DNA of 53,557 nt, from NCBI RefSeq assembly GCF_000220985.1, contig NZ_AFRW01000099.1, forward strand, positions 1 through 53,557, read 5' to 3'. Below the pieces are notes generated by a model that ran no database searches, had not been told where the DNA came from, and saw only the letters and a program-made list of their open reading frames with translations. The stretch comes from Nesterenkonia sp. F (GTDB lineage: Bacteria; Actinomycetota; Actinomycetes; Actinomycetales; Micrococcaceae). This document shows positions 36,693-53,111 of the stretch, in pieces. The first letter of the stretch is position 1. Each line of letters starts with the position of its first letter. A program made the position numbers and the translations under genes.

Positions 36693-38048
36693 TCAGCCGC
36701 GGCGGCCGGGGTGGTCGGCGGCCAGATGCGGCCCCTCGCCGCCGAGCTGCTCGCGCAGGGTGACCGGCTGCTCGGGCCGCTTGCCCAGCAGCCCGCGGCG
36801 CCGCAGCTCCGGGGTCACCAGGTCGCGGAACCGCTCGAAGTCGGCCGGACGCACCGCCGCGGAGACGTTGAAGCCGTCGACGCCGGCGACGTCCCGCCAG
36901 CGTTCCAGCTCGTCCACCACCTGCGCGGGATCGCCGACGATCAGCGGGCCGCGGCCGCCGATGGCGATGAACTCCGCCGCGTCGCGGACCGTCCAGCGCT
37001 GCTCCGGGTCTCGGGTGAACATCGCCAGCGCCGACTGGTTGGCCTCGGTCTGCACATCGGCGATGACGTCGTCCTCGGCCAGGTCCGAGAGGTCGACGCC
37101 GGTCCAGCCGCCGAAGAGCGTCAGCGCGGCCTCGGTGTCGACGTGCTCGCGGTACTCCTCCACCCGCGCCCGCGCCTGGTCCTCAGTCTCGCCGACGACG
37201 ATGGTGACCATCGCGAAGAAGCGCACCGACCCGGGATCCCGGCCGGCGGCGGAGAGCTCCTCACGCGTGGCGGCGACCTGATCGGCCAGCTTCTCCGGCC
37301 GCGAGGTGATCGCGAAGATCGCCTCGGCATGGTCGACGGCGAACTGCTGTCCGCGGGCCGAGGAGCCGGCCTGGAAGAGCAGCGGAGTGCGCTGCGGCCC
37401 CGGGTGGGTGAGCATGCGCCCGGGCACGGAGAACCAGCGGCCCTCGTGGCCGACGTCGTGGACCTTCTCCGGATCCACGAAGACCCCGCGCTCGGCATCG
37501 GCGACCACCGCGTCGTCCTCGACGGAGCGCTCGAAGAGCCCGTACATCACCTCCATATACTCGTCGGCGCGGTCGTAGCGCTCGTCGTGCGGGATCTGTC
37601 CCTGCATGCCCAGGTTCCGCGCCGCCGAGTCCTGGTAGCTGGTGACGATGTTCCAGGCCACCCGGCCGCCGGCGAGGTGGTCCAGCGTCGCGAAGCGCCG
37701 CGCGAGCAGGTACGGCGCCTCGTAGGTCACCGAGGCGGTCACCCCGAAGCCCAGATGGGTGGTCGCCGCGGCCAGGGCCGGCACGATCACCTGCGGATCC
37801 AGCAGCGGGTATTGGACGCCGCCGCGCGCGGCGGCGTCGCCGCTGCCGCCGTAGACGTCGTAGACCCCGGGCACGTCGGCCAGGAAGAGGCAGGAGAAGC
37901 CGGCATCCTCCACCGTCCGCGACAGCTCGGTCCAGAAGTCCAGCGTGTCGAAGTCGGCGATCCGCGAGTCCGGGTGGCGCCACAGCCCCGGGGACTGGTG
38001 GACGGGGACGAGCATGTCGAAGGCGTTGAACAGCATCGGCTGGGGCAC
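36693..38048 (-). CDS. LLM-class flavin-dependent monooxygenase, sulfur operon
   Basis: A 451-residue FMNH2-dependent monooxygenase of the NtaA/SnaA/DszA group. Typical segments: HQSPGLWRHPDSR, FLADVPGVYDVYGG, GGRVAWNIVTSYQDSAARNLG and LLFQAGSSARGQQFAVDHAEA. I use the GTG at 38048 (MPQPMLFNAFDM) because GGAG stands seven bases upstream; an ATG four codons later is the alternative. It is the last gene of the S-box-led operon metN-metI-metQ-sfnB-like-LLM, so it probably attacks a C-S bond in an imported organosulfur compound. The reduced flavin would come from the flavin reductase at 48612. Confidence 0.88.
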   Translation of the reverse strand: MPQPMLFNAFDMLVPVHQSPGLWRHPDSRIADFDTLDFWTELSRTVEDAGFSCLFLADVPGVYDVYGGSGDAAARGGVQYPLLDPQVIVPALAAATTHLGFGVTASVTYEAPYLLARRFATLDHLAGGRVAWNIVTSYQDSAARNLGMQGQIPHDERYDRADEYMEVMYGLFERSVEDDAVVADAERGVFVDPEKVHDVGHEGRWFSVPGRMLTHPGPQRTPLLFQAGSSARGQQFAVDHAEAIFAITSRPEKLADQVAATREELSAAGRDPGSVRFFAMVTIVVGETEDQARARVEEYREHVDTEAALTLFGGWTGVDLSDLAEDDVIADVQTEANQSALAMFTRDPEQRWTVRDAAEFIAIGGRGPLIVGDPAQVVDELERWRDVAGVDGFNVSAAVRPADFERFRDLVTPELRRRGLLGKRPEQPVTLREQLGGEGPHLAADHPGRRG

Positions 38049-38118
38049 GGGATCGCTCCGTTCTCTGGGTCTGGGCAGGGGCTCCGGCGCGACGGCCGGC
38101 CGGGGACGTCGACCGCCG

Positions 38119-39414
38119 TCAGGACGACGACGCCGCGTCGCCGGCTCCTCCGGCGGCGGTCCGCGCCTCGCCGATCGCGTTGAGCCCCTCGGGCAGGGTG
38201 CCGTTGACCTCCCAGTCGCCGACGGCGCGGGCGCGGAAGGCGACGGGATTGTGCGTGGCGATCGTCTGGGCGTTGCGCCAGTGGCGGTCCAGAGCCTTGC
38301 CGCGCAGCGTCGCCGAGGCGCCCGCGGTCTGGAACAGCTCCTGGGCGACGCCGATGGTCGTCTCCGGCACGGTGATCTGTGCCTGCTCGACGGCGATCTC
38401 GGCGTCGTGGACCGCACGCGGCAGCTCGGCGTGCGGATCCTGCGTGCCGGCGGCCAGCCCGGCGGCCAGCGCGCGGTCCTGGATGCGGGCGACCTCGAGC
38501 ACCGTCGCCTCCGCCGCGAAGGTCCGCGCCGACATCCGGCCGACGATCTGCTGGATCAGCGGGTCCTCGCGGAACAGCTGCCCGGCCCCGGAGGTGTTGA
38601 AGGTGCGGGTGCGCGCGGCGACCAGTGCGGAGGCGTCGGCGAGGGCGGCGCGGGCGATGCCGACCTGCACCGCCAGCAGGTGGAGCTGGAAGAAGGCCGC
38701 CTCATGGACGGCCTCGTGCGAGCCGGGCACCCGATCGAGCACCGCGTCCTCGGCGACCGGCACGCCGTCGAACTGCGTGGTGCCGGTGCCGGTGAGCCGC
38801 TGGCCGAAGCCGTCCCAGTCGTCGTGGACGGTCACGCCGGCGGCGTCGGTCGGCACGACGGCGAAGCCGCGCCCCTCGCCCCCGGGCCGGGAGACCGAGA
38901 CGCGGGTGTGGTCGGAGAAGATCGTGCCGGTGGAGTAGAACTTCTCGCCGTCCAGCCGCAGCATGCCGTCCTCGCCGCGGGTGAGGACCGTGTTCAGCGT
39001 GCCCAGCGCATTGCCGCCCTTCTCCGTGGAGGCGTTGCCGACGGTCTCGCCGGCCAGCACCCGCGGGTACCAGGCGCGGCGGATCTCCCCGGGCTGGAAG
39101 CGCAGCGACTCCACGAAGCCGAAGTGCCCGCGGTAGAGGTGGGCGACGTTGGAGTCGGCGGCCGCCAGCCGGATCACCTGACGGGCCAGGTCCTCGATGC
39201 TCGCTCCGGGGCCGCCGGCCTCGCGGGGCACGCGCAGCGCGCCGAAGCCGGCCGCGTCCAGCGCGGCGACGGGGCCGTGCGGCAGGTCGCGTTCCAGCTC
39301 GCGGGCCGCCGCGCCGTCGGCGATCCCGGCGAGCAGGTCCTCGCCGAGCTCGATCCCGTCGGCGGAGCGACGGGCCTCGGGGGCGAGCGTCTCGGCCGGT
39401 GTGCTCGTGCTCAT
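38119..39414 (-). CDS. Acyl-CoA-dehydrogenase-fold monooxygenase (SfnB/DszC type)
   Basis: A 431-residue flavoprotein with the acyl-CoA dehydrogenase fold. LRVPREAGGPGASIEDL, NASTEKGGNALG and the C-terminal RHWRNAQTIATHNPVAFRARAVGDW are those of the SfnB/DszC branch, which are FMNH2-dependent monooxygenases in sulfone and thiophene sulfur metabolism; a catalytic base for acyl-CoA oxidation is not needed. It lies between MetQ and the LLM gene and is on the same S-box-controlled transcript. The 154-bp gap before it contains a 7-bp hairpin (TCGGGAG/CTCCCGA), which might reduce expression of the two last genes. Confidence 0.85.
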   Translation of the reverse strand: MSTSTPAETLAPEARRSADGIELGEDLLAGIADGAAARELERDLPHGPVAALDAAGFGALRVPREAGGPGASIEDLARQVIRLAAADSNVAHLYRGHFGFVESLRFQPGEIRRAWYPRVLAGETVGNASTEKGGNALGTLNTVLTRGEDGMLRLDGEKFYSTGTIFSDHTRVSVSRPGGEGRGFAVVPTDAAGVTVHDDWDGFGQRLTGTGTTQFDGVPVAEDAVLDRVPGSHEAVHEAAFFQLHLLAVQVGIARAALADASALVAARTRTFNTSGAGQLFREDPLIQQIVGRMSARTFAAEATVLEVARIQDRALAAGLAAGTQDPHAELPRAVHDAEIAVEQAQITVPETTIGVAQELFQTAGASATLRGKALDRHWRNAQTIATHNPVAFRARAVGDWEVNGTLPEGLNAIGEARTAAGGAGDAASSS

Positions 39415-39568
39415 CGTGGCATCACGTCCTCGGGCGGTGCAGGCGGTGCGAGCCGTGCGGCATCCGGCGGCGCCGGCTCGGGAGGGAGACTCCCGACGGC
39501 GGTCGTCGCGGCCATGCCCAGTGCACCGCGCGACCGCCGCCGGGAGGGTTCGGAGGGGGCGGTCCGGC

Positions 39569-40495
39569 TCAGCCGGCGAAGTCCGCCCAGACGTCCTCGA
39601 CGGTCGAGAGGGTGAACTCGTCGGTGAAGTCGATGGCGCCGTCGAGGTACTCGGCGTACCACTGCCGGACCTCCTCGGACTGGAAGGCCTTCTGCAGCGC
39701 CCGGGCCTTCTCGGTGTCCTGGAAGCCGGGCTGGCCGGCGACGACGATCGTGTAGGGACGCCGGACCTCGGCGTCGTCCTCCAGGATCAGCGCGGTCTCG
39801 TCGACGTCGTGGCCGGCCTCGGCGATCAGCCGGGCGAAGGCGAAGCCGGCGTCGACGTCGGGCAGCGTCTGCGGCGTGGACTGCTGGTCGACCTCGATGA
39901 ACTCGAAATTCTTCGGGTTGGCGGTGATGTCGCGCTGGCTGAGCTCGGTCACCGGCTTGGACTCGTCGATCTCCAGCGCGCCGGCTTCGGCCAGCAGCTT
40001 GATGCCGCGGCCGTTGTTGGCGGTGTCCACCGCCAGCGCGATCTGCGCGCCCTCGGGCAGGTCCTCGATGCTGTCATGCTCGAGCGAGAAGATGCCGCTG
40101 GGCGCGTAGTACACCGAGAAGGCCGGCTCGACGTCGGTGCCGTTGTCCTCGTTGAACTGGCGCAGGTAGGCGATGTGCTGGAAGAAGTTCGCGTCGTACT
40201 CGCCCTGGGAGACGACCTGGTTGGGCTGGATGATGTCGGTGACGTAGGTCGTCTCCAGCGTCCAGCCGTCCTCGGCCAGCAGCTCCTTGGCGATCTCGGT
40301 GGGCTCCTGGAAGGGCGCGGACTCGGTGACGATCATGCTGATGGTCGTGTCGTCGCCGCCTCCGCCGCCGACCGCGTCGGCCAGCCCGCAGGAGGTCAGC
40401 GCCAGCGCACCGGCGGCGCCGAGGCTGCCGACGAGCACGCCGCGGCGGGAGGGGCCGCCGAGCGAGGATCCGGAGGTGTTCAGCAGATGAGACAT
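39569..40495 (-). CDS. metQ: Methionine ABC transporter binding lipoprotein MetQ
   Basis: A 308-residue NlpA/MetQ lipoprotein. Signal peptide with lipobox LTSC (Arg-Arg at 17-18, so Tat export is possible). Conserved segments: YDANFFQHIAYLRQFNEDNG, GIFSLEHDSIEDLPEGAQIALAVDTANNGRG and DAGFAFARL. It binds methionine or an oxidised or related sulfur compound outside the membrane and delivers it to MetI/MetN, which lie upstream in the operon. 112 bp separate it from metI. Confidence 0.92.
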   Translation of the reverse strand: MSHLLNTSGSSLGGPSRRGVLVGSLGAAGALALTSCGLADAVGGGGGDDTTISMIVTESAPFQEPTEIAKELLAEDGWTLETTYVTDIIQPNQVVSQGEYDANFFQHIAYLRQFNEDNGTDVEPAFSVYYAPSGIFSLEHDSIEDLPEGAQIALAVDTANNGRGIKLLAEAGALEIDESKPVTELSQRDITANPKNFEFIEVDQQSTPQTLPDVDAGFAFARLIAEAGHDVDETALILEDDAEVRRPYTIVVAGQPGFQDTEKARALQKAFQSEEVRQWYAEYLDGAIDFTDEFTLSTVEDVWADFAG

Positions 40496-40607
40496 GGTGG
40501 ATGCTTTCGTGTCAGAGGTGCGGTGAGCAGTCGACGCGACGAGCGGGTCGCGCCGGACTGCGGACGGATGGAGCCGGAGACGGTCCCGGCGAGCGGGAGC
40601 AGAGCGG

Positions 40608-41269
40608 TCAGACCCGTTTGTCGGCCAGTCGGGAGAGCCGACCGCCGCCCCATTGGACGACGCTGACCAGGGCGAGCATCAGCACGATGGCCACCAGCAT
40701 CACCGCGGTCTCGTAGCGGTAGTAGCCGTAGCGGATGGCGAAGTCGCCGATCCCTCCGCCGCCGACCAGCCCGACCATCGCCGAATAGGAGATGAAGCTG
40801 ACGGTGGTGATGGTGATCGACCCGATGAGGCCGGGCCGGGCGTCGACCAGCAGCACGTTGCGGATGATCTGCCCCCGCGTCGCGCCCATCGCCCGGGATG
40901 CCTCCACGGCGCCGGTGCCGAGCTGACTGATGTTCTGCTCGACCAGCCGGGCGAAGTACGGGATCGCGTTGACCGTCAGCGGCACGATCGCCGCGGCGGT
41001 GCCGACGGTGGTGCCCACGATGAGCCGGGTGAACGGGATGATCGCGATGAGCAGGATCAGGAACGGGAAGGAGCGCACGGCGTTGACCAGTCCGCTGACC
41101 ACCGCGTGGCTGCGCGGCGACGGCGAGATCCCGCCCGGGGCGTGGACGAAGAGCCACACGCCCAGCGGCGTGCCGAGCAGCACCGCCAGCGGGATGGCCA
41201 CGCCGATCATCACGAAGGTCTCCAGCAGGGCCTGGACCAGCTCGGGCTGCAGTTCGAGGATGCGATGCA

Positions 41270-41270
<1 letters not shown>
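40608..41270 (-). CDS. metI: Methionine ABC transporter permease MetI
   Basis: A 220-residue permease with five to six helices. The cytoplasmic coupling loop is EASRAMGATRGQIIRNVLLVDARPGLI, and GLVGGGGIGDFAIRYGYYRYETAVM is the MetI signature. The ATG at 41270 overlaps the metN stop by one base (TGATG). Confidence 0.93.
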
Positions 41271-42157
<887 letters not shown>

Positions 42158-42165
42158 GGGCATTC

Positions 42166-42258
42166 TCCATCGGTCCTGGCGGTAGCACCCGGCGCGGCGT
42201 GGCCTTTCCGGGTTGCTGCGACGTCGTCGAGCCAGATCTCTCAGTCGCTCTGGATGGT
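42166..42258 (-). promoter_or_regulatory. SAM-I (S-box) riboswitch A, upstream of metN
   Basis: On the minus strand: CCATCCAGAGCGACTGAGAG, ATCTGGCTCG, ACGACGTCGCAGCAACCC, a variable P3 arm, GGGTGCTACCGCCAGGACC and GATGGAG. CCATC pairs with GATGG to close P1, and GGAG is also the metN Shine-Dalgarno, so P1 formation on SAM binding would hide it. Translational control is inferred. Confidence 0.92.
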
Positions 42259-42269
42259 GGCTGGACTCA

Positions 42270-42468: not shown

Positions 42469-42477
42469 GAACCGCGT

Positions 42478-43543: not shown

Positions 43544-44653
43544 ATGAATCGTTCGCAGCACACCGCCCTCCGCACCGCCCGCACCACCCGCACCACCCGC
43601 ACCACCCGCACCACCCGCACCACCCGGCTGGCCCGCATCGTCGCCGCCGGCACCGCAGTGACCGCACTGGCCGCCGGCTGCGTGCAGGGCGAGGGGCCGT
43701 CCGACGCCGAGGGCGGCTCGCTGGAGACGCTGACCATCGACTTCGCCACCTACAACCCGCTGAGCCTGATCATGAAGGAGCAGGGCTGGCTGGAGGAGGA
43801 GCTCTCCGAGGAGGGCACCGAGGTCGAGTGGGTCCAGTCCCACGGCTCCAACGACGCCAATGAGAAGCTCCGCGCCGAGGCGATCCAGGTCGGCTCCACC
43901 GCCGGGTCGGCCGCGCTGCTGGCCCGCGCCAACGGCGCCGAGCAGAAGATGATCCTCATCGAGAACCAGCCCGAGTGGTCGGCGCTGGTCACCGGGCCGG
44001 ACTCGGACATCGAATCGATGGAGGACCTCGAGGGCGCCAGCGTGGCCGCCACGCTGGGCACCGACCCCTACTTCTTCCTGGTCCAGGCGCTGCAGGAGGC
44101 CGGGATGAGCGTCGACGACGTCGAGGTCCAGAACCTCCAGCACGCCGACGGCGCCACCGCGCTGTCCAACGGCGACGTCGACGCCTGGGCGGGCCTGGAC
44201 CCGATCATGGCCGGCTCCGAGCAGGAGGGGGCCGAGCTCTTCTACCGGAACGTGGACTTCAACACCTACAGCGTCATCAACGCCACTGAGACGTTCATCG
44301 AGGAGCACCCGGACACGGCGCAGACCGTGGTCGACGTCTACGAGCAGGCCCGGCAGTGGGCGCAGGAGAACCCGGACCAGACCGCCGAGATCCTCGCCGA
44401 GTACGGCAACATCGAGACCTCGGTGGCCGAGCAGGTCATCACCGAGCGCACCACCTTCGACGTCGACCCGGTGCCGGGCGAGGCGCAGCGCGAGGTCCTC
44501 GAGGAGGTCGGCCCGATCTTCCTGGACACCGGAGACGTCTCCGAGCAGGAGGACATCGACCAGGCCCTCGAGACCCTGTTCCACCCCGAATTCGCCGAGG
44601 ACCGCGAGGCCGCCGACGCCGAGGGGACGACCTCCTCCGGAGGTGATGAGTGA
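43544..44653 (+). CDS. ABC transporter binding lipoprotein, SsuA/TauA type, with repeat-expanded signal peptide
   Basis: A 369-residue substrate-binding lipoprotein. The n-region of its signal peptide is stretched by RTT repeats (five perfect copies of a 9-bp unit at 43580-43624); the hydrophobic core LARIVAAGTAVTALAAGC ends at the lipidated Cys. The mature part (IDFATYNPLSLIMKEQGWLEEEL, VEWVQSHGSNDANEKLRAEAIQVGSTAG, GASVAATLGTDPYFFLVQAL, WAGLDPIMAG) is the SsuA/NMT1 fold for aliphatic sulfonates. A Glu/Asp-rich tail follows. It is co-transcribed with the ATPase and permease. The exact ligand is unknown. Confidence 0.9.
   Translation: MNRSQHTALRTARTTRTTRTTRTTRTTRLARIVAAGTAVTALAAGCVQGEGPSDAEGGSLETLTIDFATYNPLSLIMKEQGWLEEELSEEGTEVEWVQSHGSNDANEKLRAEAIQVGSTAGSAALLARANGAEQKMILIENQPEWSALVTGPDSDIESMEDLEGASVAATLGTDPYFFLVQALQEAGMSVDDVEVQNLQHADGATALSNGDVDAWAGLDPIMAGSEQEGAELFYRNVDFNTYSVINATETFIEEHPDTAQTVVDVYEQARQWAQENPDQTAEILAEYGNIETSVAEQVITERTTFDVDPVPGEAQREVLEEVGPIFLDTGDVSEQEDIDQALETLFHPEFAEDREAADAEGTTSSGGDE
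43580..43624 (+). repeat. 9-bp tandem repeat in a signal peptide, five copies
   Basis: CGCACCACC five times without change (a diverged CGCACCGCC precedes). It codes for RTT units and lengthens the positively charged n-region of the binding-protein signal peptide. A slip of one unit would keep the frame. Confidence 0.93.
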
Positions 44654-45576
44654 TGGCTGAGGCGACGCAGGAGAGCTCCCGAAAGGTCGCTGACCAGGGA
44701 CGTCACCAGACCGGAGGGACGGGCCGGCCCGAGCAGGCCGTCGGGACCCACCGCTCCGAGTGGGCGCGGAAGCCCTCCGGGCCAGAGTCGGCCGAGGAGA
44801 GCACCCCGCGCCGCGTCCGTCGCATCCCCGGCGCCCGGCCGGCGCTCGGCGCGGTCGTGCCGCTGATCCTGCTGCTGGCCTGGTGGCTGGTGACCGATGT
44901 CTTCGGCCTCTTCTCCTCCGTGCAGCTGCCGGCGCCGCAGGACGTCGTCGCCGCCGGCGTGGAGCTGCACGAGCGCGGCGAGCTGGGCCAGCACATCGCG
45001 ATCTCCGTGCAGCGCGTGCTGCTCGGCTTCGGCATCGGCGCGGTGCTCGGGCTGGCGATCGGGTCGCTGCTGGGACTGTCGCGGATCGCCGACACGCTGC
45101 TGCAGCCGACGATCGGCGCCTTCCGGGCCGTGCCCTCGCTGGCCTGGGTGCCGCTGCTGATCCTCTGGATGGGCATCTACGAGGACTCGAAGGTCACGCT
45201 GATCGCCATCGGCGCCTTCTTCCCGGTGTTCACCGCCGTGTATTCGGCCCTGCGGCATGTGGACCCGCATCTGGTCGAGGCCGGCCGGGCCTTCGGGCTG
45301 CACGGGGTGCGGCTGCTGACCACCGTCCAGCTGCCGGCAGTGGTTCCCTCGGTGTTCTCCGGCCTACGGCTGGCGCTGGCCCAGGCCTGGCTGTTCCTGG
45401 TGGCCGCCGAGCTCATCGCCTCCTCGATGGGCCTGGGCTTCGTGCTCACCGACTCGCAGAACACCGGCCGCACCGATCGGCTGCTGCTGGCGATCATCCT
45501 GCTGGCGGTCATCGGCAAGATCACCGACGCCCTGCTGGGCCTGGTCGAGCGTCGCGCGCTGACGAGCTGGGCGTAG
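44653..45576 (+). CDS. ABC transporter permease, SsuC/TauC type
   Basis: A 307-residue permease. The N-terminal about 60 residues are polar; six helices follow. The coupling loop EAGRAFGLHGVRLLTTVQLPAVVPSVFSGLRLALAQAW and AFRAVPSLAWVPLLILWMGI are those of SsuC/TauC/NrtB. The ATG at 44653 overlaps the binding-protein stop by one base (TGATG). It ends before a family-A palindrome. Confidence 0.9.
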   Translation: MAEATQESSRKVADQGRHQTGGTGRPEQAVGTHRSEWARKPSGPESAEESTPRRVRRIPGARPALGAVVPLILLLAWWLVTDVFGLFSSVQLPAPQDVVAAGVELHERGELGQHIAISVQRVLLGFGIGAVLGLAIGSLLGLSRIADTLLQPTIGAFRAVPSLAWVPLLILWMGIYEDSKVTLIAIGAFFPVFTAVYSALRHVDPHLVEAGRAFGLHGVRLLTTVQLPAVVPSVFSGLRLALAQAWLFLVAAELIASSMGLGFVLTDSQNTGRTDRLLLAIILLAVIGKITDALLGLVERRALTSWA

Positions 45577-45678: not shown

Positions 45679-46728
45679 TCAGGCGGTCTCGCCCAGCCCG
45701 GCGATGTGCTCGGGCAGCCGCTCGTGGGAGCCGTACATGAAGTGGTTCTGCATCCGCTCGCCGTCCCGGCTCGACGGCGTCGTCCGCCCGGCGGCCTCGG
45801 CGACCTCGCGGATGTGGATCGGCGCGGCCCCGCAGCACACCCCGAGGTACTGCACGTCCAGCGCCAGCGCCTCCTCGGCGAAGGAGCGGATCTCGTACCG
45901 GTTGGTGAACAGCGGATCCAGCGCCGTCGGGAAGGTCCGCCCGTGCGGTGCGGGCACCGCCGCGGCGTCGTCGGAGAGGTTGAAGAAGGTCGGCTCCTCC
46001 TCCGTGGTCCGGTAGGGCACCGGCAGCGCGCCCACGTGGCAGGAGACCGCCTCGCGGATCCGGCGCAGCCACGGCATGGTGGTCTGCGGCCCGCGGAAGC
46101 AGTTGAGCCCGACGACGTCGGCGCCGGCCTGCTCCAGCCGCTGGGCGGTCTCGACGATGCCGACGTCGTCGGACATCCTCTCCGTGGCCATCGGCGCGAG
46201 CGTGGTGACCACCGCGAGGCCGCTCTCCTTCGCGACCTCCAGGGCCGCGAGCGCCTCGCCGGCGTAGTAGAACGTCTCGGCGACGATGAGGTCGGCGCCC
46301 TCGTCGACGGCCCAGCCGACCATCTCCTCGAACATCCCGCGCACCTCCGCCTGGGCGGCCGGATCCGCCGGGTCCCAGATGTTGGTGTTGGAGATGTTGC
46401 CGGCGACCAGGTCGCCGGGCCGCTCGTCGGCCACCTGCCGGGCGATCTGCAGAGCCGCGCGGTTCAGCGGCTCGAGCAGGTCCTCCTTGCCGATGACCCG
46501 CATCTTCTCGCGGTGCCCGTTGTAGGTGAAGGCCTCGACGACGTCGGAGCCGGCGCGCTGGAAGTCGACGTGCAGCCCGCGCAGCGCCTCCGGGTGCTCG
46601 AGGGCGACCTCGGGGACGAACTCGCCGGCGGAGAGGTACCCGCGCCGCTCGAGCTCGAAGAGGAAGCCCTCCGCGCAGATCACCGGCCCGGCGTCGAGGC
46701 GCCGGGTGAAGTCCTGGGGTGTGGTCAT
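45679..46728 (-). CDS. BHMT-like homocysteine S-methyltransferase
   Basis: A 349-residue zinc methyltransferase. It follows betaine-homocysteine methyltransferase along its length: LDAGPVICAEGFLFELERRGYLSAGEFVPE, HPEALRGLHVDFQRAGSDVVEAFTYNG, GADLIVAETFYYAGEAL, and the zinc ligands Cys210 (GLNCFRGP) and Cys298-Cys299 (GVCCGA). It makes methionine from homocysteine using a methyl donor that could be glycine betaine, S-methylmethionine or a sulfonium such as DMSP. BHMT-like proteins are less common than MmuM in bacteria. It lies 13 bp after the LLM gene, under riboswitch C. Confidence 0.88.
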   Translation of the reverse strand: MTTPQDFTRRLDAGPVICAEGFLFELERRGYLSAGEFVPEVALEHPEALRGLHVDFQRAGSDVVEAFTYNGHREKMRVIGKEDLLEPLNRAALQIARQVADERPGDLVAGNISNTNIWDPADPAAQAEVRGMFEEMVGWAVDEGADLIVAETFYYAGEALAALEVAKESGLAVVTTLAPMATERMSDDVGIVETAQRLEQAGADVVGLNCFRGPQTTMPWLRRIREAVSCHVGALPVPYRTTEEEPTFFNLSDDAAAVPAPHGRTFPTALDPLFTNRYEIRSFAEEALALDVQYLGVCCGAAPIHIREVAEAAGRTTPSSRDGERMQNHFMYGSHERLPEHIAGLGETA

Positions 46729-46741: not shown

Positions 46742-48169
46742 TCAGCCGTTCTGCGCCTGCCGGCGCAGCTGGAACTGGGCGCCGTGGTGGGTCTCGGGCA
46801 GGTGGTCGCCGGCGCCGAAGAGCTTGTGGCGCATCGTGCCGGAGGTGTATTCGGTCTTGTAGCGGCCGAGCTTCTGCAGTTCGGGCACCACGTGCTCGAC
46901 GATGTCCTCGAAGGTCCCGGGCGTGATGTGGTACGCCAGGTTGAACCCGTCGACGTCGGTCTCCTCCTGCCACTCGACCAGCTGCCGGGCCGCGGACTCG
47001 CCGCCGCCGACGATCACCGGGCCGAAGCCGCCGACGCCGACCCACTCGGCCAGCTGACGCACCGTCCACGGCTCGCCCTCGCGGCCGGAGGCCTTCTGGA
47101 AGGTCTCGACGGTGGACTGGATGGCGTTGGACTCGACGTCGCCGATCGGCTGGTCGAGGTCGAACTGGCTGAGGTCCAGCCCCATCCATCCCGACATCAG
47201 CACCAGTCCGCCGATCGGGTCGATGTACTGGACCAGGTCGTCGTACTTCGCCTGCGCGGCGGCGTCGTCGGCCCCGGTGACCACGGTCTGCATGGCGAAG
47301 ATGCGCACCGAGTAGGGGTCGCGACCGGCGTCGGCGGCGGCCTGGCGGATCCGCTGCACCGACTGCTCGGCCAGCTCCTTCGTCGGCGGATTGATGAACA
47401 CCGCCTCGGCATGCTTGCCGGCGAAGGCCCGCCCGCGGGTGGAGGCGCCGGCCTGGTAGATCACCGGCGTGCGCTGCGGCGAGGGCTCGACCACCGAGAT
47501 GCCCGGGGTCTTGAAGTGTTCGCCCTGGTGCTCGATGCGGTGGACCTTGGACGTGTCGGTGAAGACGCCGGCGGCCTTGTCGGCGACGACGGCGTCGTCC
47601 TCCCAGGAGCCCTCGAGCAGCTTGTAGACCACGTCCATGTACTCGTCGGCATGGTCGTAGCGGGCGTCGTGCTCGAGCTGGTCGTCCTGGCCCATGTTCT
47701 GCGCGGCCGAGGGCAGATAGCCGGTGACGACGTTCCAGCCCACGCGGCCGCCGGTGAGGTGGTCCAGCGTGCCCAGGCGGCGGGCGAAGGGGTAGGGATG
47801 CTCGTAGGCGGTGCCGGCGGTCAGTCCGAAGCCGAGGTGCTCGGTCACCGCGGCCATCGCCGAGACCAGCAGGAACGGGTCGTTGACCGGCACCTGCGCG
47901 CCGGAGGACAGCGCGGCGTCGGGGCTGTCGGCGTAGACGTCGTAGGGGCCGAGCACGTCGGCGATGAACAGGCCGTCGAACAGCCCCTTCTCCAGGGTCT
48001 TCGCGACATCGGTCCAGTACTTCAGCGTGTTGTACTCCCGCGCCCGGTCCTCCGGGTGGCGCCACAGTCCCGGGGACTGGTGGACCACGCAGTTCATGTC
48101 GAAGGCGTTGAACAGGATCTCGCGCTGTCCGGACGGGGTGGTCGGCGGCTGGGACGGGGTGTGCGTCAT
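46742..48169 (-). CDS. LLM-class flavin-dependent monooxygenase, SAM-regulated
   Basis: A 475-residue NtaA/SnaA/DszA-type monooxygenase. Motifs: FNAFDMNCVVHQSPGLWRHPEDR, FIADVLGPYDVYADSPDAAL, GGRVGWNVVTGYLPSAAQNMG and VIYQAGASTRGRAFAGKHAEA. It is similar to the LLM at 36693 and likely a paralogue with another substrate. Start at the ATG at 48169: GAGGAG lies seven bases upstream; the open frame extends 39 residues into the leader, which is riboswitch RNA. First gene after riboswitch C, followed by the BHMT-like gene. Confidence 0.9.
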   Translation of the reverse strand: MTHTPSQPPTTPSGQREILFNAFDMNCVVHQSPGLWRHPEDRAREYNTLKYWTDVAKTLEKGLFDGLFIADVLGPYDVYADSPDAALSSGAQVPVNDPFLLVSAMAAVTEHLGFGLTAGTAYEHPYPFARRLGTLDHLTGGRVGWNVVTGYLPSAAQNMGQDDQLEHDARYDHADEYMDVVYKLLEGSWEDDAVVADKAAGVFTDTSKVHRIEHQGEHFKTPGISVVEPSPQRTPVIYQAGASTRGRAFAGKHAEAVFINPPTKELAEQSVQRIRQAAADAGRDPYSVRIFAMQTVVTGADDAAAQAKYDDLVQYIDPIGGLVLMSGWMGLDLSQFDLDQPIGDVESNAIQSTVETFQKASGREGEPWTVRQLAEWVGVGGFGPVIVGGGESAARQLVEWQEETDVDGFNLAYHITPGTFEDIVEHVVPELQKLGRYKTEYTSGTMRHKLFGAGDHLPETHHGAQFQLRRQAQNG

Positions 48170-48263
48170 GCGGTGCTCCTCGTGTGGCTCGCCGATGCAG
48201 GCGCCCCTCGCGCGACGGCCGACGGAGCGATCCGCCGATCGGGTGTGCGCGAGGAAGGAGACC

Positions 48264-48347
48264 TCCATCGGTCCTGGCATTAGCACCCGGCGGGTCCGGG
48301 TTGCTGCGGCGTCGACGAGCCAGGTCTCTCAGCCGCTCTGGATGGTA
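48264..48347 (-). promoter_or_regulatory. SAM-I (S-box) riboswitch C, upstream of LLM-BHMT
   Basis: On the minus strand: ACCATCCAGAGCGGCTGAG, AGACCTGGCTCG, TCGACGCCGCAGCAACCC, GGACCCGCC, GGGTGCTAATGCCAGGACC and GATGGAGG. P1 closes by CCATC/GATGG. About 95 nt separate it from the ATG at 48169, unlike the other three copies, where the Shine-Dalgarno abuts the aptamer. Confidence 0.92.
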
Positions 48348-48355
48348 CGGCTCGC

Positions 48356-48477: not shown

Positions 48478-48507
48478 TTGGACCCGGGGATCGGCACCCC
48501 GTACCGT
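48478..48507 (+). promoter_or_regulatory. Promoter of the flavin reductase-acs-metY operon
   Basis: TTGGAC (48478-48483), 18-bp spacer, TACCGT (48502-48507). GTCTCACATGATGGGC (48456-48471) just upstream is nearly the same as before the SsuABC-type operon. Confidence 0.6.
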
Positions 48508-48515
48508 GAATCAGG

Positions 48516-48601
48516 TATCCATCCCGAGCGGCCGAGAGATCTGGCTCGTCGACGCCGCAGCAACCCGTTGAGTCGGGTGCTACCGCCAGGACCGATGGGA
48601 G
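48516..48601 (+). promoter_or_regulatory. SAM-I (S-box) riboswitch D, upstream of flavin reductase-acs-metY
   Basis: ATCCATCCCGAGCGGCCGAG, AGATCTGGCTCG, TCGACGCCGCAGCAACCCG, TTGAGTC, GGGTGCTACCGCCAGGACC and GATGGGAG. The first about 40 bases are almost identical to riboswitch B. GGGAG ends ten bases before the ATG at 48612. Confidence 0.92.
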
Positions 48602-48611
48602 TGAATCGCCG

Positions 48612-49172
48612 ATGTCCGCATCCGCACCGGTCGCCGCCGAGACGCCGACCGCCCTCGACCCGCTGCAGCTGCGCCGGGCCTTCTCCGAGTTCCCGCAGGG
48701 CGTGGTCGTCGTCGCCGCCGAGGTCGACGGCGCCCCCGAGGCGCTGGTCGCTTCCACCTTCACCGTCGGGGTCTCGCTGGATCCGCCGCTGGTCACCTTC
48801 GCGGTGCAGCACACCTCGAACACCTGGCCACGGCTGCGCGACGGCGCCGACCGGCTGGGCATCTCGGTGCTCGGCCGTGGCCAGCACGGGCTGTGCCGCC
48901 AGATCGCCTCGAAGGACCGCGCCTCCCGTTTCGACGGCGTCGCCCGGACCGCCGACGACGACGGCGCGATCGCCCTGGACGGCTCGCCGCTGACGCTGAC
49001 CACCCGCGTCCACGACCAGGTCACCGCCGGCGACCACGACATCGTCGTCCTGGAGGTCCTCGACGTCGCCGTCGACGAGCGCGACGAGGCCCGCCCGCTG
49101 GTCTTCCACCGCAGCGACTTCGCCCAGGTGCACGCCCCCGCTCCCGATCCCGCCCCGGAGGACGCCCGGTGA
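48612..49172 (+). CDS. Flavin reductase (FMN-reductase-like) for two-component monooxygenases
   Basis: A 186-residue flavin-binding protein with the split-barrel flavin reductase fold: LRRAFSEFPQGVVVVAAEVDG, VASTFTVGVSLDPPLVTFAVQHTSNTWPRLR, LGISVLG and the C-terminal PLVFHRSDFAQV. It makes FMNH2 from FMN and NAD(P)H for partner enzymes; the window holds three LLM and one SfnB/DszC-like monooxygenases that need this. First gene of the SAM-controlled operon. Its stop overlaps the GTG of acs (GTGA at 49169-49172). Confidence 0.9.
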   Translation: MSASAPVAAETPTALDPLQLRRAFSEFPQGVVVVAAEVDGAPEALVASTFTVGVSLDPPLVTFAVQHTSNTWPRLRDGADRLGISVLGRGQHGLCRQIASKDRASRFDGVARTADDDGAIALDGSPLTLTTRVHDQVTAGDHDIVVLEVLDVAVDERDEARPLVFHRSDFAQVHAPAPDPAPEDAR

Positions 49173-51250
49173 CCCGACCCGCCGAGACCATCGGCGACGC
49201 CGCCGTCGCGTCCGCCGAGCCGCTGGCAGCCGACGTCCACGCCTGGGCCGATCCGCAGACCGAGGACGAACGCCTGGACTTCTGGGCCCGCGCGGCCGCC
49301 CTGCTGGACTGGGAGAGCCCCTGGACCACCACCCACTCCTGGACCCCGCCGGATCCCGACGCCCGGCGGGGACCGGACATCCGCTGGTTCTCCGGCGGGA
49401 GGCTCAACGCCGCGGTGAACTGCGTCGACCGCCATGTCGCCGCCGGCCGCGGCGACGTCGTCGCGCTGCACTTCGAGGGCGAGCCGGGCGACCGGCGCAA
49501 GGTCACCTACACCGAGCTGCAGGATCAGGTGAACCGCGCGGCGAACGCCCTGACCGCCCTGGGCGTCGGCGCCGGCGACCGGGTGGTCATCTACCTGCCG
49601 GTGCTCGTGGAGACGGTGGTCGTCACGCTGGCCTGTGCGCGCATCGGCGCGGTGCATTCGCTGGTCTTCGGCGGCTTCTCGGCCGAGGCGCTGCGCTTCC
49701 GCGTCGAGGACACCTCCGCGAAGCTGCTGGTCACCACCGACGGGCAGTTCCGCCGCGGGCAGGCGGTGCCGGTGAAGACGAACGCCGACGCCGCCGTCGC
49801 CGGGGAGAACGCGATCGAGCATGTGCTGGTCGTCGAGCGCACCGGCTCGGACGTCGCCTGGGCCGAGGGCCGCGACGTGGCCTGGCGCGACGTCGTCGAC
49901 ACCGCCTCGCCGGTGCACGAGCCGGAGTCCTTCGACGCCGAGCACGAGCTGTTCATCATGTACACCTCCGGGACCACCGGGAAGCCCAAGGGTCTGGTGC
50001 ACACCACCGGCGGCTATCTGACCGGCGCGCTGTTCACCCACCTGCGGCTCTTCGCCCACCCGGATCCGGCGCGGCGGAGCGAGGACGTCCACTGGTGCAC
50101 CGCCGATCTGGCCTGGGTCACCGCCCACACCTATGAGATCTACGGACCGCTGGCCGCCGGCGCGACCCAGGTCATCTACGAGGGCACGCCGACCACCCCG
50201 CATCCCGGACGGCACTTCGAGATCATCCAGCGCCTCGGCGTGACCAGCTACTACACCGCCCCGACGCTGGTGCGTTCGCTGATGGGCGCCTTCCCCGACG
50301 GCATTCCGGACGAGTACGACCTCTCCAGCATCCGGCTGGCCGGCACCGTCGGCGAGGCGGTCAATCCCGAGGCCTGGCGGTGGATCCGGCGGGAGATCGG
50401 CCGCGACGCCGTCGACGACGCCGGACGACCCGCACTCCCCCTGGTCGACACCTGGTGGCAGTCCGAGTCGGGCTCCACCGTGCTCTCCCCGCGCCCGGAG
50501 GATGCCGCGACCCGCGCGCTGAAGCCCGGCTGCGCGACCCGGGCGATGCCCGGTTGGGAGGCCGCAGTCGTCGACGACGCCGGCGCATCGGTCGACGCCG
50601 AGACCCAGGGCAACATCGTGCTCACCCGCACCGGCCCGTCGATGGCGCGCACCGTCTGGGGCGATCCCGAGCGGTACTACACCTCCTACTGGGCCCAGTA
50701 CGCCGAGCAGGGCTGGTTCCTGGCCGGCGACGGCGCCAAGCAGGACGGCGACGGCGACCTGTGGATCCTCGGCCGCATCGACGAGGTCATCAACATCTCC
50801 GGCCACCGGCTCTCGACCATCGAGATCGAGTCGGCCCTGGTCTCCCACCCCGACGTGGTCGAGGCCGGCGTCTGCCCGGTGGAGGATGCGACCACCGGCC
50901 ACGCCGCAGTGGCCTTCGTCGTGCTGACCGACGCCGCCCGCGAGCGCCTCGCCGACGCCGGATCGGCGGGCGACGCCGCGGCCGAGGATCAGCTGCTGGC
51001 CGGGCTGCGCGCCCACGTCGGAGAGGTGATCGGGCCGGTGGCCAAGCCGCGGCGGGTGATCCCGGTGCCCGAGGTGCCCAAGACCCGCTCCGGCAAGATC
51101 ATGCGCCGGCTGCTGGCCCAGCTGCACGACGGCGATTCCCTCGGCGACACCACCAGCCTGCAGAATGAGCACTGCGTGGACCAGATCGCCGCGATCTGCC
51201 ACGCCCGCGGCACCGCCGCCACCCGCCCCACGACCCAGGAGACCGCATGA
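49169..51250 (+). CDS. acs: Acetyl-CoA synthetase (AMP-forming)
   Basis: A 693-residue acyl-adenylate enzyme. It has the Acs layout: an N-terminal acetyl-CoA-synthetase domain (WFSGGRLNAAVNCVDRH), YTSGTTGKPKGLVHTTGGYL (P-loop), WWQSESGS (acetate-binding Trp region), GDGAKQDGDGDLWILGRIDE and the C-terminal PKTRSGKIMRR with the conserved catalytic, acetylatable Lys. It is expected to make acetyl-CoA from acetate; a related short acid (sulfoacetate, propionate) cannot be excluded. Its place between a flavin reductase and metY under a SAM riboswitch is unusual. Acetyl-CoA could feed O-acetylhomoserine, the MetY substrate. GTG start coupled to the gene before it; ATGA overlap with metY. Confidence 0.92.
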   Translation: MTRPAETIGDAAVASAEPLAADVHAWADPQTEDERLDFWARAAALLDWESPWTTTHSWTPPDPDARRGPDIRWFSGGRLNAAVNCVDRHVAAGRGDVVALHFEGEPGDRRKVTYTELQDQVNRAANALTALGVGAGDRVVIYLPVLVETVVVTLACARIGAVHSLVFGGFSAEALRFRVEDTSAKLLVTTDGQFRRGQAVPVKTNADAAVAGENAIEHVLVVERTGSDVAWAEGRDVAWRDVVDTASPVHEPESFDAEHELFIMYTSGTTGKPKGLVHTTGGYLTGALFTHLRLFAHPDPARRSEDVHWCTADLAWVTAHTYEIYGPLAAGATQVIYEGTPTTPHPGRHFEIIQRLGVTSYYTAPTLVRSLMGAFPDGIPDEYDLSSIRLAGTVGEAVNPEAWRWIRREIGRDAVDDAGRPALPLVDTWWQSESGSTVLSPRPEDAATRALKPGCATRAMPGWEAAVVDDAGASVDAETQGNIVLTRTGPSMARTVWGDPERYYTSYWAQYAEQGWFLAGDGAKQDGDGDLWILGRIDEVINISGHRLSTIEIESALVSHPDVVEAGVCPVEDATTGHAAVAFVVLTDAARERLADAGSAGDAAAEDQLLAGLRAHVGEVIGPVAKPRRVIPVPEVPKTRSGKIMRRLLAQLHDGDSLGDTTSLQNEHCVDQIAAICHARGTAATRPTTQETA

Positions 51251-52596
51251 GCGATCGACAGTTCGGATTCCGCACCCGGGCGCTGCACGCCGGGACCGTC
51301 CCGGACGCCGTCCACGGCACCCGGGCGGTGCCGATCCACCAGTCGACGTCCTTCGTCTTCAAGGACACCGACGACGCCGCGAACCTCTTCGCGCTGCAGA
51401 AGTACGGCAGCATCTACTCGCGGATCGGCAACCCCACGGTCAATGCGCTGGAGGAGCGGCTGGCCTCGCTGGAGGGCGGCATCGGGGCGGTGGCCACCGC
51501 CTCGGGGATGAGCGCGGAGTTCCTGGTCTTCGCCGCGCTCTGCGGCACCGGCGACCACATCGTCGCCTCCTCGAAGCTCTACGGCGGCACCGTGACCCAG
51601 CTGGACGTCACGCTGCGCCGCTTCGGCATCGAGACGACCTTCGTCGACACCACCGACCCGGAGGCCTTCCGCGCCGCGCTGCAGGAGAACACCAAGGTCG
51701 TCTACACCGAGACGGTGGCCAACCCCAGCTCCGACGTCGCCGACCTGCGCGGGCTGGCCGACGTCGCCCATGAGCACGGGGTGCCGCTGGTGGTCGACTC
51801 CACCCTGACCACGCCCTACCTGCTGCGGCCGATCGAGCACGGCGCCGACATCGTCGTCCACTCGGTGACGAAGTTCCTCGGCGGACACGGCACCACGCTG
51901 GGCGGCGTCGTCGTCGAGGCCGGGACCTTCCCCTGGGACAACGGAAAGTTCCCCTCGATGACCGAGCCGGTCCCCTCCTACGGAAACCTCTCGTGGTGGG
52001 GGAACTTCGGCGAGTACGGCTTCCTGACCAAACTGCGCTCCGAGCAGCTGCGCGACGTCGGCCCGTCGCTGAGCGCGCAGGCGGCGTTCCAGCTGATGCA
52101 GGGCATCGAGACGCTGCCCCAGCGGATGGGCGAGCATGTCGCCAATGCGCAGCGGGTCGCCGCATGGCTGGAGGCCGACGAACGCATCTCCTACGTCAAC
52201 TACGCCGGACTGGCCTCGCATCCCGACCACGCGCGGGCGCAGGAGGTGCTGCCGCTGGGCGCCGGCTCGGTGTTCAGCTTCGGCGTGGCCGGCGGCCGCG
52301 AGGTCGGCGCACGGTTCATCGAGTCGCTGCAGCTGGCCAGCCACCTGGCCAACGTCGGCGACGTGCGCACGCTGATCCTGCACCCCGGCTCGACCACCCA
52401 CCAGCAGCTCACCGAAGAGCAGATGGACGCCGCCGGCATCCCGGAGGATCTGATCCGCATCTCAGTGGGTCTGGAGGACGTCGAGGACATCCTCTGGGAT
52501 CTGGACCAGGCGCTGGACGCCGCCCTGGCCGCGACGGCGGTCGAGAGCGACGGCGAGCAGGGCGAGCAGGCTGAGCAGAGCGAGGAGGCCCGATGA
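51247..52596 (+). CDS. metY: O-acetylhomoserine sulfhydrylase
   Basis: A 449-residue PLP enzyme of the Cys/Met metabolism family. It makes homocysteine (or methionine, if methanethiol is used) from O-acetylhomoserine and sulfide. Motifs: IHQSTSFVFKDTDDAANLF, YSRIGNPTVNALEERLASLEGG, ASGMSAEF and the Schiff-base lysine Lys209 in HSVTKFLGGHGTTLGG. The length matches MetY rather than the shorter MetB/MetC. ATGA overlap with acs upstream and with the CoA-binding gene downstream (52593-52596). A Glu/Gln-rich C-terminus is a small addition. Confidence 0.93.
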   Translation: MSDRQFGFRTRALHAGTVPDAVHGTRAVPIHQSTSFVFKDTDDAANLFALQKYGSIYSRIGNPTVNALEERLASLEGGIGAVATASGMSAEFLVFAALCGTGDHIVASSKLYGGTVTQLDVTLRRFGIETTFVDTTDPEAFRAALQENTKVVYTETVANPSSDVADLRGLADVAHEHGVPLVVDSTLTTPYLLRPIEHGADIVVHSVTKFLGGHGTTLGGVVVEAGTFPWDNGKFPSMTEPVPSYGNLSWWGNFGEYGFLTKLRSEQLRDVGPSLSAQAAFQLMQGIETLPQRMGEHVANAQRVAAWLEADERISYVNYAGLASHPDHARAQEVLPLGAGSVFSFGVAGGREVGARFIESLQLASHLANVGDVRTLILHPGSTTHQQLTEEQMDAAGIPEDLIRISVGLEDVEDILWDLDQALDAALAATAVESDGEQGEQAEQSEEAR

Positions 52597-53111
52597 GCAC
52601 CACGGAGACCACCGCCGAGCACCCGCACGGGATCTGGGAGCCGCCGTCGCCGGTGCGCCGACTGCAGCTGCTGCACTCTGCGCAGTCGATCGCGATCGTC
52701 GGCGCCTCGGACAAGCCGCAGCGCGCCAGCCATTTCGTGGCGACCTATCTGCTGAGCTCGTCGAGCTACCGGGTGCACTTCATCAATCCCCGGCTGGACG
52801 AGATCCTGGGCCAGCCGGTGTACCCCTCGTTGGCCGACCTGCCGGAGGTCCCCGACATCGTCGACGTCTTCCGCCGCCCCGGGGACGTGCCGGGCATCGT
52901 CGACGAGGCCGCCGAGGTCGGCGCCCAGACCGTATGGATGCAGCTGGGCATCCGGAACCCGGAGGCGGCGCAGCTGGCCCGCGACCGGGGCATGGAGGCG
53001 GTGCAGGACCGCTGCGTGAAGATCGAGCACGCCCGCTTCCACGGCGGGCTGAACCTCGCCGGCTTCAACACCGGGGTGATCAGTGCCAAGCGTCAGCGCC
53101 TGGACGGCTGA
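52593..53111 (+). CDS. CoA-binding (YccU-like) domain protein
   Basis: A 172-residue Rossmann-type protein: IAIVGASDKPQRASHFVATYLLSSSSYRVHFINPRLDEILGQPVYPSLADLPEVPDIVDVFRRP is the CoA-binding-domain signature. It is a single-domain member, not part of a succinyl-CoA synthetase. Its biochemical role is not established; such genes are often seen near metY, which suggests a link to acyl-CoA or O-acetylhomoserine metabolism. Last gene of the operon, followed by two strong hairpins. Confidence 0.85.
   Translation: MSTTETTAEHPHGIWEPPSPVRRLQLLHSAQSIAIVGASDKPQRASHFVATYLLSSSSYRVHFINPRLDEILGQPVYPSLADLPEVPDIVDVFRRPGDVPGIVDEAAEVGAQTVWMQLGIRNPEAAQLARDRGMEAVQDRCVKIEHARFHGGLNLAGFNTGVISAKRQRLDG

What the first reader, a model, noticed from the sequence alone, without database searches (positions are those of the whole stretch)
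36693..53111. SAM-controlled organosulfur salvage island with four operons
Two importers (MetNIQ, SsuABC-type), three FMNH2-dependent monooxygenase genes (two LLM, one SfnB/DszC-like), one flavin reductase, a BHMT-like methyltransferase, MetY, Acs and a CoA-binding protein are all placed behind S-box riboswitches. Family knowledge says LLM/SfnB/DszC enzymes cleave C-S bonds in sulfones, sulfides or sulfonates, and MetY fixes sulfide or methanethiol. Together this suggests a full path from an imported organosulfur compound to methionine, regulated by SAM rather than by the CysB/Cbl or McbR systems known elsewhere. The substrate is unidentified.
Basis: partly seen in the sequence, partly recalled or inferred. 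Interest (0 to 1): 0.8.

Follow-up and report, generated by a model that had tools for sequence, protein, structure and literature searches.

The report
Riboswitch-run organosulfur scavenging gene cluster
A bacterium of the genus Nesterenkonia keeps four neighbouring gene sets for importing and dismantling organic sulfur compounds behind RNA switches that read S-adenosylmethionine, and related bacteria share the arrangement, although the compounds it takes up are still unknown.

Summary
Four SAM-I (S-box) riboswitches above Rfam's cut-off precede four operons at 36693-53111: a MetNIQ-like importer with SfnB/DszC-like and DmoA-like monooxygenases; SsuBAC; a second DmoA-like monooxygenase (LLM2) with a BHMT-like protein; flavin reductase-Acs-MetY-CoA-binding protein. 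The genome's fifth S-box leads a sulfite/PAPS-reductase operon. Two SAM-IV riboswitches lead MetY2-MetX and MetF-MetE.

The unit is conserved. Among 120 family genomes, 65 have an LLM2 orthologue of 60% identity or more; 57 of these 65 have a SAM riboswitch upstream (49 SAM-I, 8 SAM-IV), 60 if three hits just under Rfam's threshold count. Of 22 loci outside the family none has an S-box within 1.5 kb.

Corrections: the BHMT-like gene is a local addition; MetX and sulfite reductase lie elsewhere; of 41 island MetQs none keeps Asn213 and three keep Asn238, so the importer probably does not carry methionine.

Most likely a low-SAM-induced system turns imported organosulfur into sulfite or methanethiol and feeds MetY. 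Ligand response and substrates are unproven. New variant of a known kind.

The parts
36693..38036 (-). LLM1, DmoA-like FMNH2-dependent monooxygenase (TIGR03860), last gene of operon 1
   Evidence: 493.8 bits, cut-off 279.7; closest solved relative DmoA 6ak1; start chosen
38119..39414 (-). SfnB/DszC-like flavoprotein monooxygenase (acyl-CoA dehydrogenase domains)
   Evidence: SfnB 277.8 of 430.9 bits needed; 5xb8, then methanesulfinate monooxygenase 6u76
39569..40495 (-). MetQ-like substrate-binding lipoprotein with altered methionine site
   Evidence: model, fold
40608..41270 (-). MetI-like permease (start inferred; ORF open to 41387)
   Evidence: 198.1 of 212 bits needed for the MetI model
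41270..42157 (-). MetN-like ATPase, first gene of operon 1 (ATG 42157, or 42163)
   Evidence: (274.7 of 499.7 bits needed for MetN)
42164..42260 (-). SAM-I riboswitch of operon 1; ribosome-binding site lies in the 3' strand of P1
42477..42572 (+). SAM-I riboswitch of operon 2; ribosome-binding site GGGAG in P1
42585..43463 (+). SsuB-like sulfonate importer ATPase
43544..44653 (+). SsuA-family sulfonate-binding protein
   Evidence: (TIGR01728 209 bits, cut-off 163.5)
44650..45576 (+). SsuC-like permease
45679..46728 (-). BHMT-like homocysteine S-methyltransferase (local addition to the unit)
   Evidence: only PF02574 protein found in the genome; context
46742..48169 (-). LLM2, DmoA-like FMNH2-dependent monooxygenase (TIGR03860)
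   Evidence: searches (549.1 bits; DmoA 6ak1, 539 bits; 53.8% identity), tree
48262..48348 (-). SAM-I riboswitch of operon 3, followed by 92 nt down to 48170 that can act as expression platform
   Evidence: folding
48516..48601 (+). SAM-I riboswitch of operon 4; ribosome-binding site GGGAG in P1
48612..49172 (+). flavin reductase (PF01613)
49169..51250 (+). acetyl-CoA synthetase Acs (TIGR02188 over cut-off)
51247..52596 (+). MetY, O-acetylhomoserine sulfhydrylase (TIGR01326 over cut-off)
52593..53111 (+). small CoA-binding protein (PF13380)

Best explanation
This is a SAM-repressed organosulfur scavenging regulon. When SAM is high, SAM binding stabilises P1 of each S-box and hides the ribosome-binding site (directly in operons 1, 2 and 4; through a downstream anti-SD in operon 3). 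When SAM falls, translation starts. SsuBAC and a re-specialised MetNIQ-type importer bring in anionic organosulfur compounds; the flavin reductase makes FMNH2; the two DmoA-like monooxygenases and the SfnB/DszC-like flavoprotein oxidise them and break C-S bonds. The sulfur leaves as sulfite (reduced by the operon behind the genome's fifth S-box) or as methanethiol. MetY joins sulfide or methanethiol to O-acetylhomoserine from MetX, giving homocysteine (methylated by MetE or the BHMT-like enzyme) or methionine directly; Acs reclaims the acetate that MetY releases. Shown by sequence: the RNA elements, their placement, gene families, conservation. Inferred: ligand response, substrates, the released sulfur species, the Acs role.
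For: Four S-boxes over cut-off. SD in P1 of operons 1, 2, 4; over the fetched loci 123 of 185 distinct S-boxes have an SD-like motif in P1 with a start codon 4-13 nt on and an ORF of 100 aa or open to the end of the stretch, a mode already described for SAM-I (PMC2258182, passages). Operon 3: the LLM2 SD is 0.75 unpaired when P1 is free and 0.03 when P1 is forced. Conservation in 30 Nesterenkonia genomes: the window's layout, apart from the gene beside LLM2, in 7; S-box-led MetN operon in 20, SsuBAC in 19, flavin reductase or Acs operon in 16 (hand counts). LLM2 orthologues of 60% or more in 65 of 120 family genomes, 57 of 65 with a same-strand SAM riboswitch upstream (recount), 8 of them SAM-IV. 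Closest solved relative of LLM1 and LLM2 is DMS monooxygenase. Acetyl-type MetX present. Dibenzothiophene-grown, sulfate-starved Rhodococcus IGTS8 raises the same kind of set, TauAB, MetNQ, NtaA, MetY, SsuD (PMC8557817, passages). MetY making methionine plus acetate from methanethiol is described for Pelagibacter, where SAM riboswitches control bhmT and metY (PMC5069961, passages).
Against: No ligand binding, expression or growth data. LLM1/LLM2 are only 46.5% and 53.8% identical to DmoA, and the tree does not place either as DmoA's supported sister. The SfnB, DszC, MetN and MetI models are missed (I ran no control showing how often true actinobacterial MetN or MetI pass). J1/2 of operons 2 and 4 carries C where the Rfam consensus has A (CCGA in 61 of 191 S-boxes of the family loci). 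In operon 3 the P1-forced fold is 3.9 kcal/mol less stable than the free one without ligand. Of 65 orthologues 8 lack a SAM riboswitch over threshold within about 4 kb; 5 lack one even with a laxer search. Protein regulators were not searched.
Confidence: 0.7

Rival explanations
1. Narrower version: the cluster is a sulfonate and sulfonate-ester system, functionally the ssu/seu genes of Corynebacterium glutamicum, releasing only sulfite; MetY fixes the sulfide made from it and no methanethiol is involved.
For: SsuA over its model's cut-off; two LLM enzymes plus one DszC-like enzyme recall SeuABC (composition recalled, not tested); the sulfite reductase operon is under the fifth S-box; in C. 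glutamicum ssu/seu genes and metY are in the McbR regulon (PMC2580772, passages).
Against: LLM1 and LLM2 are in a clade with DmoA that excludes LadA (99/94) and match the SsuD and SfnG models only weakly.
Confidence: 0.4
2. The cluster mainly salvages methionine and its oxidised forms: MetNIQ imports methionine or its sulfoxide or sulfone, and the rest reworks them.
For: MetQ family membership and fold; SAM control fits methionine homeostasis.
Against: Of 41 distinct island MetQs none keeps Asn213 and 3 keep Asn238; Asn238 to Ala costs over 10^5-fold in L-methionine affinity (PMC6739813, passages). Five canonical MetQs from Nesterenkonia and Brevibacterium all keep Asn213, and the four rows that reach Asn238 keep it. 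MetN and MetI models are missed.
Confidence: 0.1
3. It is a dimethyl sulfide or dimethyl sulfone pathway serving carbon as well as sulfur, as in methylotrophic Arthrobacter and Hyphomicrobium sulfonivorans.
For: DmoA is the nearest solved relative; 17 of 20 listed DmoA binding residues are kept in each LLM; DMS degradation is reported in Arthrobacter (PMC9259527, passages), also a Micrococcaceae genus.
Against: SAM control and MetY point to sulfur supply, not carbon; dimethyl sulfide should need no importer (inference); the 20 residues came from comparison with LadA and do not separate the two.
Confidence: 0.12

Closest known systems
Corynebacterium glutamicum ssu/seu sulfonate genes with McbR, CysR and SsuR (PMC2580772, passages)
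   Same: Sulfonate utilisation, sulfite reduction and metY in one hierarchy; McbR's effector SAH ties it to the SAM cycle
   Different: Protein repressor and activators there; SAM riboswitches here; MetNIQ-like importer, DmoA-like enzymes and Acs added
SAM-V and SAM-II riboswitch regulon of Candidatus Pelagibacter ubique (PMC5069961, passages)
   Same: SAM riboswitches control metY and bhmT during organosulfur limitation
   Different: Other riboswitch classes; DMSP import and cleavage proteins stayed constant there
Bacillus subtilis S-box regulon and ytmI/yxe organosulfur operons (recalled)
   Same: S-box control of methionine genes; NtaA-family monooxygenases with amino-acid-type importers
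   Different: In B. subtilis the monooxygenase operons are under protein regulators and S-boxes mostly act on transcription (both recalled)
Dimethyl sulfide monooxygenase DmoA of Hyphomicrobium (6ak1)
   Same: Nearest solved relative of LLM1 and LLM2; NtaA/DmoA family model met by both
   Different: 46.5-53.8% identity, substrate untested, genetic setting different
Rhodococcus qingshengii IGTS8 sulfur-starvation proteins (PMC8557817, passages)
   Same: TauAB, MetNQ, NtaA-type monooxygenases, MetY and SsuD are listed as upregulated on dibenzothiophene
   Different: The word riboswitch does not occur in the main text; CymR- and ROK-type regulators are proposed; dsz pathway present

Membership tests
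SAM-I (S-box) riboswitch RF00162 | Score over the curated gathering threshold, full-length model match | tested here: met
   51.2-56.5 bits against 44.4, positions 1-108 in all four
SAM-I (S-box) riboswitch RF00162 | Four-helix fold and conserved core (GCAACC, GGUGC) | tested here: met
   alignments; invariant columns in all five S-boxes of the genome
SAM-I (S-box) riboswitch RF00162 | Consensus J1/2 nucleotides (the spermidine variant differs in J1/2 and the P3 internal loop, PMC10853860, passages) | tested here: inconclusive
   CAGA in operons 1 and 3, CCGA in operons 2 and 4; CCGA is common in the family loci (61 of 191); gene context is not polyamine
SAM-I (S-box) riboswitch RF00162 | Ligand-dependent control of the next gene | not testable with these tools
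   only anatomy and folding
DmoA dimethyl sulfide monooxygenase | NtaA/DmoA family model TIGR03860 | tested here: met
   493.8 and 549.1 bits, cut-off 279.7
DmoA dimethyl sulfide monooxygenase | Binding residues listed in PMC9259527 | tested here: inconclusive
   17 of 20 identical in LLM1 and in LLM2; the list does not separate DmoA from LadA
DmoA dimethyl sulfide monooxygenase | Groups with DmoA to the exclusion of other characterised enzymes | tested here: inconclusive
   DmoA, LLM1 and LLM2 together without LadA (99/94), but the fork that holds DmoA with LLM1 has 89/57
DmoA dimethyl sulfide monooxygenase | Methanethiol from dimethyl sulfide | not testable with these tools
   needs enzyme assay
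SfnB equivalog | TIGR04022 cut-off | tested here: not met
   277.8 of 430.9 bits
DszC dibenzothiophene monooxygenase | NF043015 cut-off | tested here: not met
   126.7 of 850 bits
MetNIQ methionine importer | MetN and MetI curated models | tested here: not met
   MetN 274.7 of 499.7, MetI 198.1 of 212 bits; no control run on other actinobacterial MetN or MetI
MetNIQ methionine importer | Methionine-site residues Arg156, Asn213, Asn238 (NmMetQ numbering) | tested here: not met
   with PMC6739813: Arg156 41 of 41, Asn213 0 of 41, Asn238 3 of 41 (window: Arg, Phe, Ile)
MetNIQ methionine importer | MetQ fold | tested here: met
   mean pLDDT 83.6, low only in residues 1-47; the 31 best Foldseek matches are MetQ/NlpA-type proteins
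SsuA sulfonate-binding protein | TIGR01728 cut-off | tested here: met
   209 bits, cut-off 163.5
MetY | TIGR01326 cut-off | tested here: met
   584.6 bits, cut-off 495.1
Acetyl-CoA synthetase | TIGR02188 cut-off | tested here: met
   747.7 bits, cut-off 724.95
Betaine-homocysteine methyltransferase | Zinc-binding Cys, CysCys (role recalled) and PF02574 domain | tested here: met
   the alignment pairs NC and CC with the mammalian BHMT chain
Betaine-homocysteine methyltransferase | NF005718 bacterial BHMT cut-off | tested here: not met
   68.3 of 338 bits

The most novel reading that the evidence does not exclude
Micrococcaceae run much of their sulfur economy with two SAM riboswitch classes: SAM-IV mostly on core methionine synthesis (metY2-metX, metF-metE) and SAM-I on acquisition (organosulfur island plus sulfite reduction), with the two classes exchanged at the same gene in some genera. 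The island's MetQ family has lost methionine's asparagine clamp and gained an invariant arginine, so the importer carries an unrecognised anionic organosulfur nutrient, which DmoA-like enzymes cut to methanethiol for MetY, with Acs reclaiming the acetate.
Probability: 0.3. Interest if true: 0.7.

Novelty: new variant of a known kind. Interest (0 to 1): 0.52.

Why it matters
It places importers and probable C-S-cleaving monooxygenases, not only methionine enzymes, behind SAM riboswitches across much of a bacterial family. It gives a ready test case for why two SAM riboswitch classes coexist in one genome, and names a MetQ subfamily whose ligand can be found by a binding screen. Because the genes are marked by RNA elements, the same search could find further uncharacterised organosulfur enzymes.

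Tried and rejected
Considered and dropped: that the BHMT-like gene is central (only the window and N. halophila have it in the unit among the fetched stretches); that intrinsic terminators run the switches (one terminator-like site in 36500-53557 against 2.6 expected in shuffles, inside acs and not at an S-box); that direct SD-in-P1 control is new (already described, PMC2258182, passages). Thought unlikely but not excluded: that the S-boxes are the spermidine-sensing variant (described from 13 examples in Gram-positive genera such as Bacillus and Oceanobacillus upstream of polyamine genes; PMC10853860, passages; here the gene context differs, but operons 2 and 4 do depart in J1/2, and binding was not tested). 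Foldseek on the MetQ model recovered MetQ-type proteins and could not name a ligand. Alignment A2 mixed strands and was discarded for A3. Literature searches whose listings showed no paper describing this unit; the library lacks most subscription papers, so this is not proof of absence. A paper on the sulfur response of Brevibacterium aurantiacum is recalled; it was not in the listing.
Full report
What is there. The window lies in a 2.81-Mb genome of the genus Nesterenkonia, family Micrococcaceae (inferred: its relative L036 is N. halophila with 89-97% identical proteins in the same order; lineage). Four SAM-I riboswitches pass Rfam's gathering score. They form two divergent pairs, at 42164-42260(-)/42477-42572(+) and 48262-48348(-)/48516-48601(+), and lead four operons whose genes were named with NCBIfam and Pfam: metN-metI-metQ-sfnB/dszC-like-LLM1; ssuB-ssuA-ssuC; LLM2-BHMT-like; flavin reductase-acs-metY-CoA-binding protein.

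The rest of the SAM circuit. The genome has one more S-box, C37:11211-11321, in front of a nitrite/sulfite reductase, a PAPS reductase and, further down, a pyridine-nucleotide-disulfide reductase. It also has two SAM-IV riboswitches: one leads MetY2 and an acetyl-type MetX, the other MetF and MetE. The BHMT-like protein is the only PF02574 protein found, so no MetH or MmuM of that family was seen in the assembly, which is 93% complete. So acquisition sits under SAM-I and core synthesis under SAM-IV in this genome.

How the switches probably work. In operons 1, 2 and 4 and at the fifth site the ribosome-binding site is the 3' strand of P1, a few bases before the start codon. Across 185 distinct S-boxes in the fetched loci, 123 have this form; 36 have an SD-like motif but no start found in range, 19 have no such motif and 7 could not be parsed. 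The mode is known for SAM-I (PMC2258182, passages). In operon 3 the start is 92 nt on; with P1 forced the LLM2 ribosome-binding site is 0.03 unpaired, without it 0.75; without ligand the P1-forced fold is the less stable by 3.9 kcal/mol. This is a predicted OFF switch of translation; ligand response is inferred.

Conservation in the genus. LLM2 matches at E of 1e-60 or better occur in 27 of 30 Nesterenkonia genomes; 24 of the 30 have an orthologue of 85% identity or more, one of them split in two pieces. S-boxes lie at matching places. Counting by hand, the window's layout, apart from the gene beside LLM2, is seen in 7 of 30 (window, L147, L157, L165, L166, L167, L168); S-box-led MetN operons in 20 of 30, S-box-led SsuBAC in 19 of 30, and S-box-led flavin reductase or Acs operons in 16 of 30. 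The fetched stretches do not always cover the whole cluster, so these are lower bounds. In L157, L161 and L165-L168 a second SfnB-like gene, not BHMT, stands beside LLM2. Of 80 fetched BHMT-like relatives, 79 lie without the cluster.

Conservation in the family. In a sample of 120 genomes, 73 have an LLM2 match at 1e-150 or better. I examined the 65 with 60% identity or more; the remaining eight, at 53-55%, were left out, except G002, whose locus has an S-box on the other strand. A SAM riboswitch lies upstream on the same strand in 57 of 65: SAM-I in 49, SAM-IV in 8 (one genome, G012; recount). Three more (G014, G044, G068) have an S-box of 36.8-43.0 bits, under the 44.4 threshold, about 3 kb upstream, which would make 60. 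Without one are G090 (S-box on the other strand), G108, G099, G075 (only 1.4 kb upstream available) and G066 (nearest same-strand S-box 7.4 kb upstream). With about four S-boxes per 3 Mb, chance would give well under 1% (my arithmetic). At class level 25 of 394 genomes match; of the 22 loci outside the family none has an S-box within 1.5 kb, and 18 of those 22 were also scanned against Rfam with no SAM-IV found.

Which genes each class controls. Of the 30 best S-boxes, one per genome, the next gene is LLM2 in 7, MetN in 5, SsuB in 5, SfnB-like in 4, a MetY-like protein of 43% identity in 3, and other or unmatched in 6. Of 20 SAM-IV sites (19 genomes) that I picked across genera from the best-scoring hits, 15 lead MetY2-MetX, one MetX alone and four none of my reference proteins. 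SAM-IV is in 120 of 120 genomes; SAM-I in 98 of 120, over the cut-off in 90. The division is a tendency, not a rule, since SAM-IV also stands before LLM2 in eight genomes.

The enzymes. DmoA is the closest solved relative of LLM2 and LLM1 (539 and 462 bits); identities are 53.8% and 46.5% and 17 of 20 listed binding residues are kept in each (list from PMC9259527, passages). In a 61-row tree, thinned from 116 sequences, DmoA, LLM1 and LLM2 form a clade without LadA (99/94), but DmoA's own place is weak. This supports an FMNH2-dependent monooxygenase of that subgroup and does not fix a substrate. Acs resembles acetyl-CoA synthetase over its length and is the first gene behind 11 of 72 S-boxes in 20 family clusters that I had chosen for their clustered S-boxes, so it belongs to the response; reclaiming MetY's acetate is my inference.

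The importer. Forty-one distinct island MetQs were aligned with five canonical MetQs of Nesterenkonia and Brevibacterium and two solved proteins (one divergent relative, L192, was set aside). None of the 41 keeps the residue matching Asn213, three keep Asn238, all keep Arg156, and all have Arg two places after the Asn213 site. The five canonical ones keep Asn213 and Arg156; four keep Asn238 and the fifth row ends before it. In N. meningitidis MetQ these three residues hold the amino and carboxyl groups, and Asn238 to Ala weakens L-methionine over 10^5-fold (PMC6739813, passages). An anionic ligand without methionine's amino group would fit; this is inference. The model keeps the MetQ fold.

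Judgement. What it takes up is unknown. The closest systems are the C. glutamicum ssu/seu genes under McbR (PMC2580772, passages) and the Pelagibacter SAM regulon (PMC5069961, passages). The listings of my searches showed no paper describing this unit in Micrococcaceae; one comparative study of RNA regulons lists only Corynebacteriaceae and Mycobacteriaceae for Actinobacteria (PMC3766115, passages).

Noticed in passing
window 9382-11754 (-): A TPP riboswitch (11659-11754) leads a short-chain dehydrogenase (10695-11561) and a third NtaA/DmoA-family monooxygenase (9382-10677, 519.8 bits), which groups with BdsA rather than with LLM1/LLM2; possibly a thiamine-related salvage pair.
   Followed up: partly
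window 15432-19100 (-): A second TPP riboswitch (18977-19100) upstream of an ECF-type transporter frame with ABC and CbiQ domains (15432-17816).
   Followed up: no
L267, L274, L275, L276, L277, L279, L280, L282: SAM-IV riboswitches stand where other genera have SAM-I, directly upstream of the LLM2 orthologue.
   Followed up: partly
L291-L295: In the five genomes of one genus (g14) LLM2 is kept at 79-81% identity, but three have only a sub-threshold S-box (36.8-43.0 bits) about 3 kb upstream, one has an S-box on the other strand and one has none; decaying or diverged switches.
   Followed up: partly
L193, L157, L165-L168: Two or three tandem MetQ paralogues in one operon in several Nesterenkonia, suggesting several ligands for one importer.
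   Followed up: partly
window 45679-46728: By the alignment, residues that I recall as betaine contacts in mammalian BHMT (Trp44, Tyr77, Tyr160) are replaced while the zinc cysteines are kept; the methyl donor may not be betaine.
   Followed up: no
L123, L129, L136, L137, L138: LLM2 matches in five Nesterenkonia genomes are listed with one stop codon; not examined.
   Followed up: no
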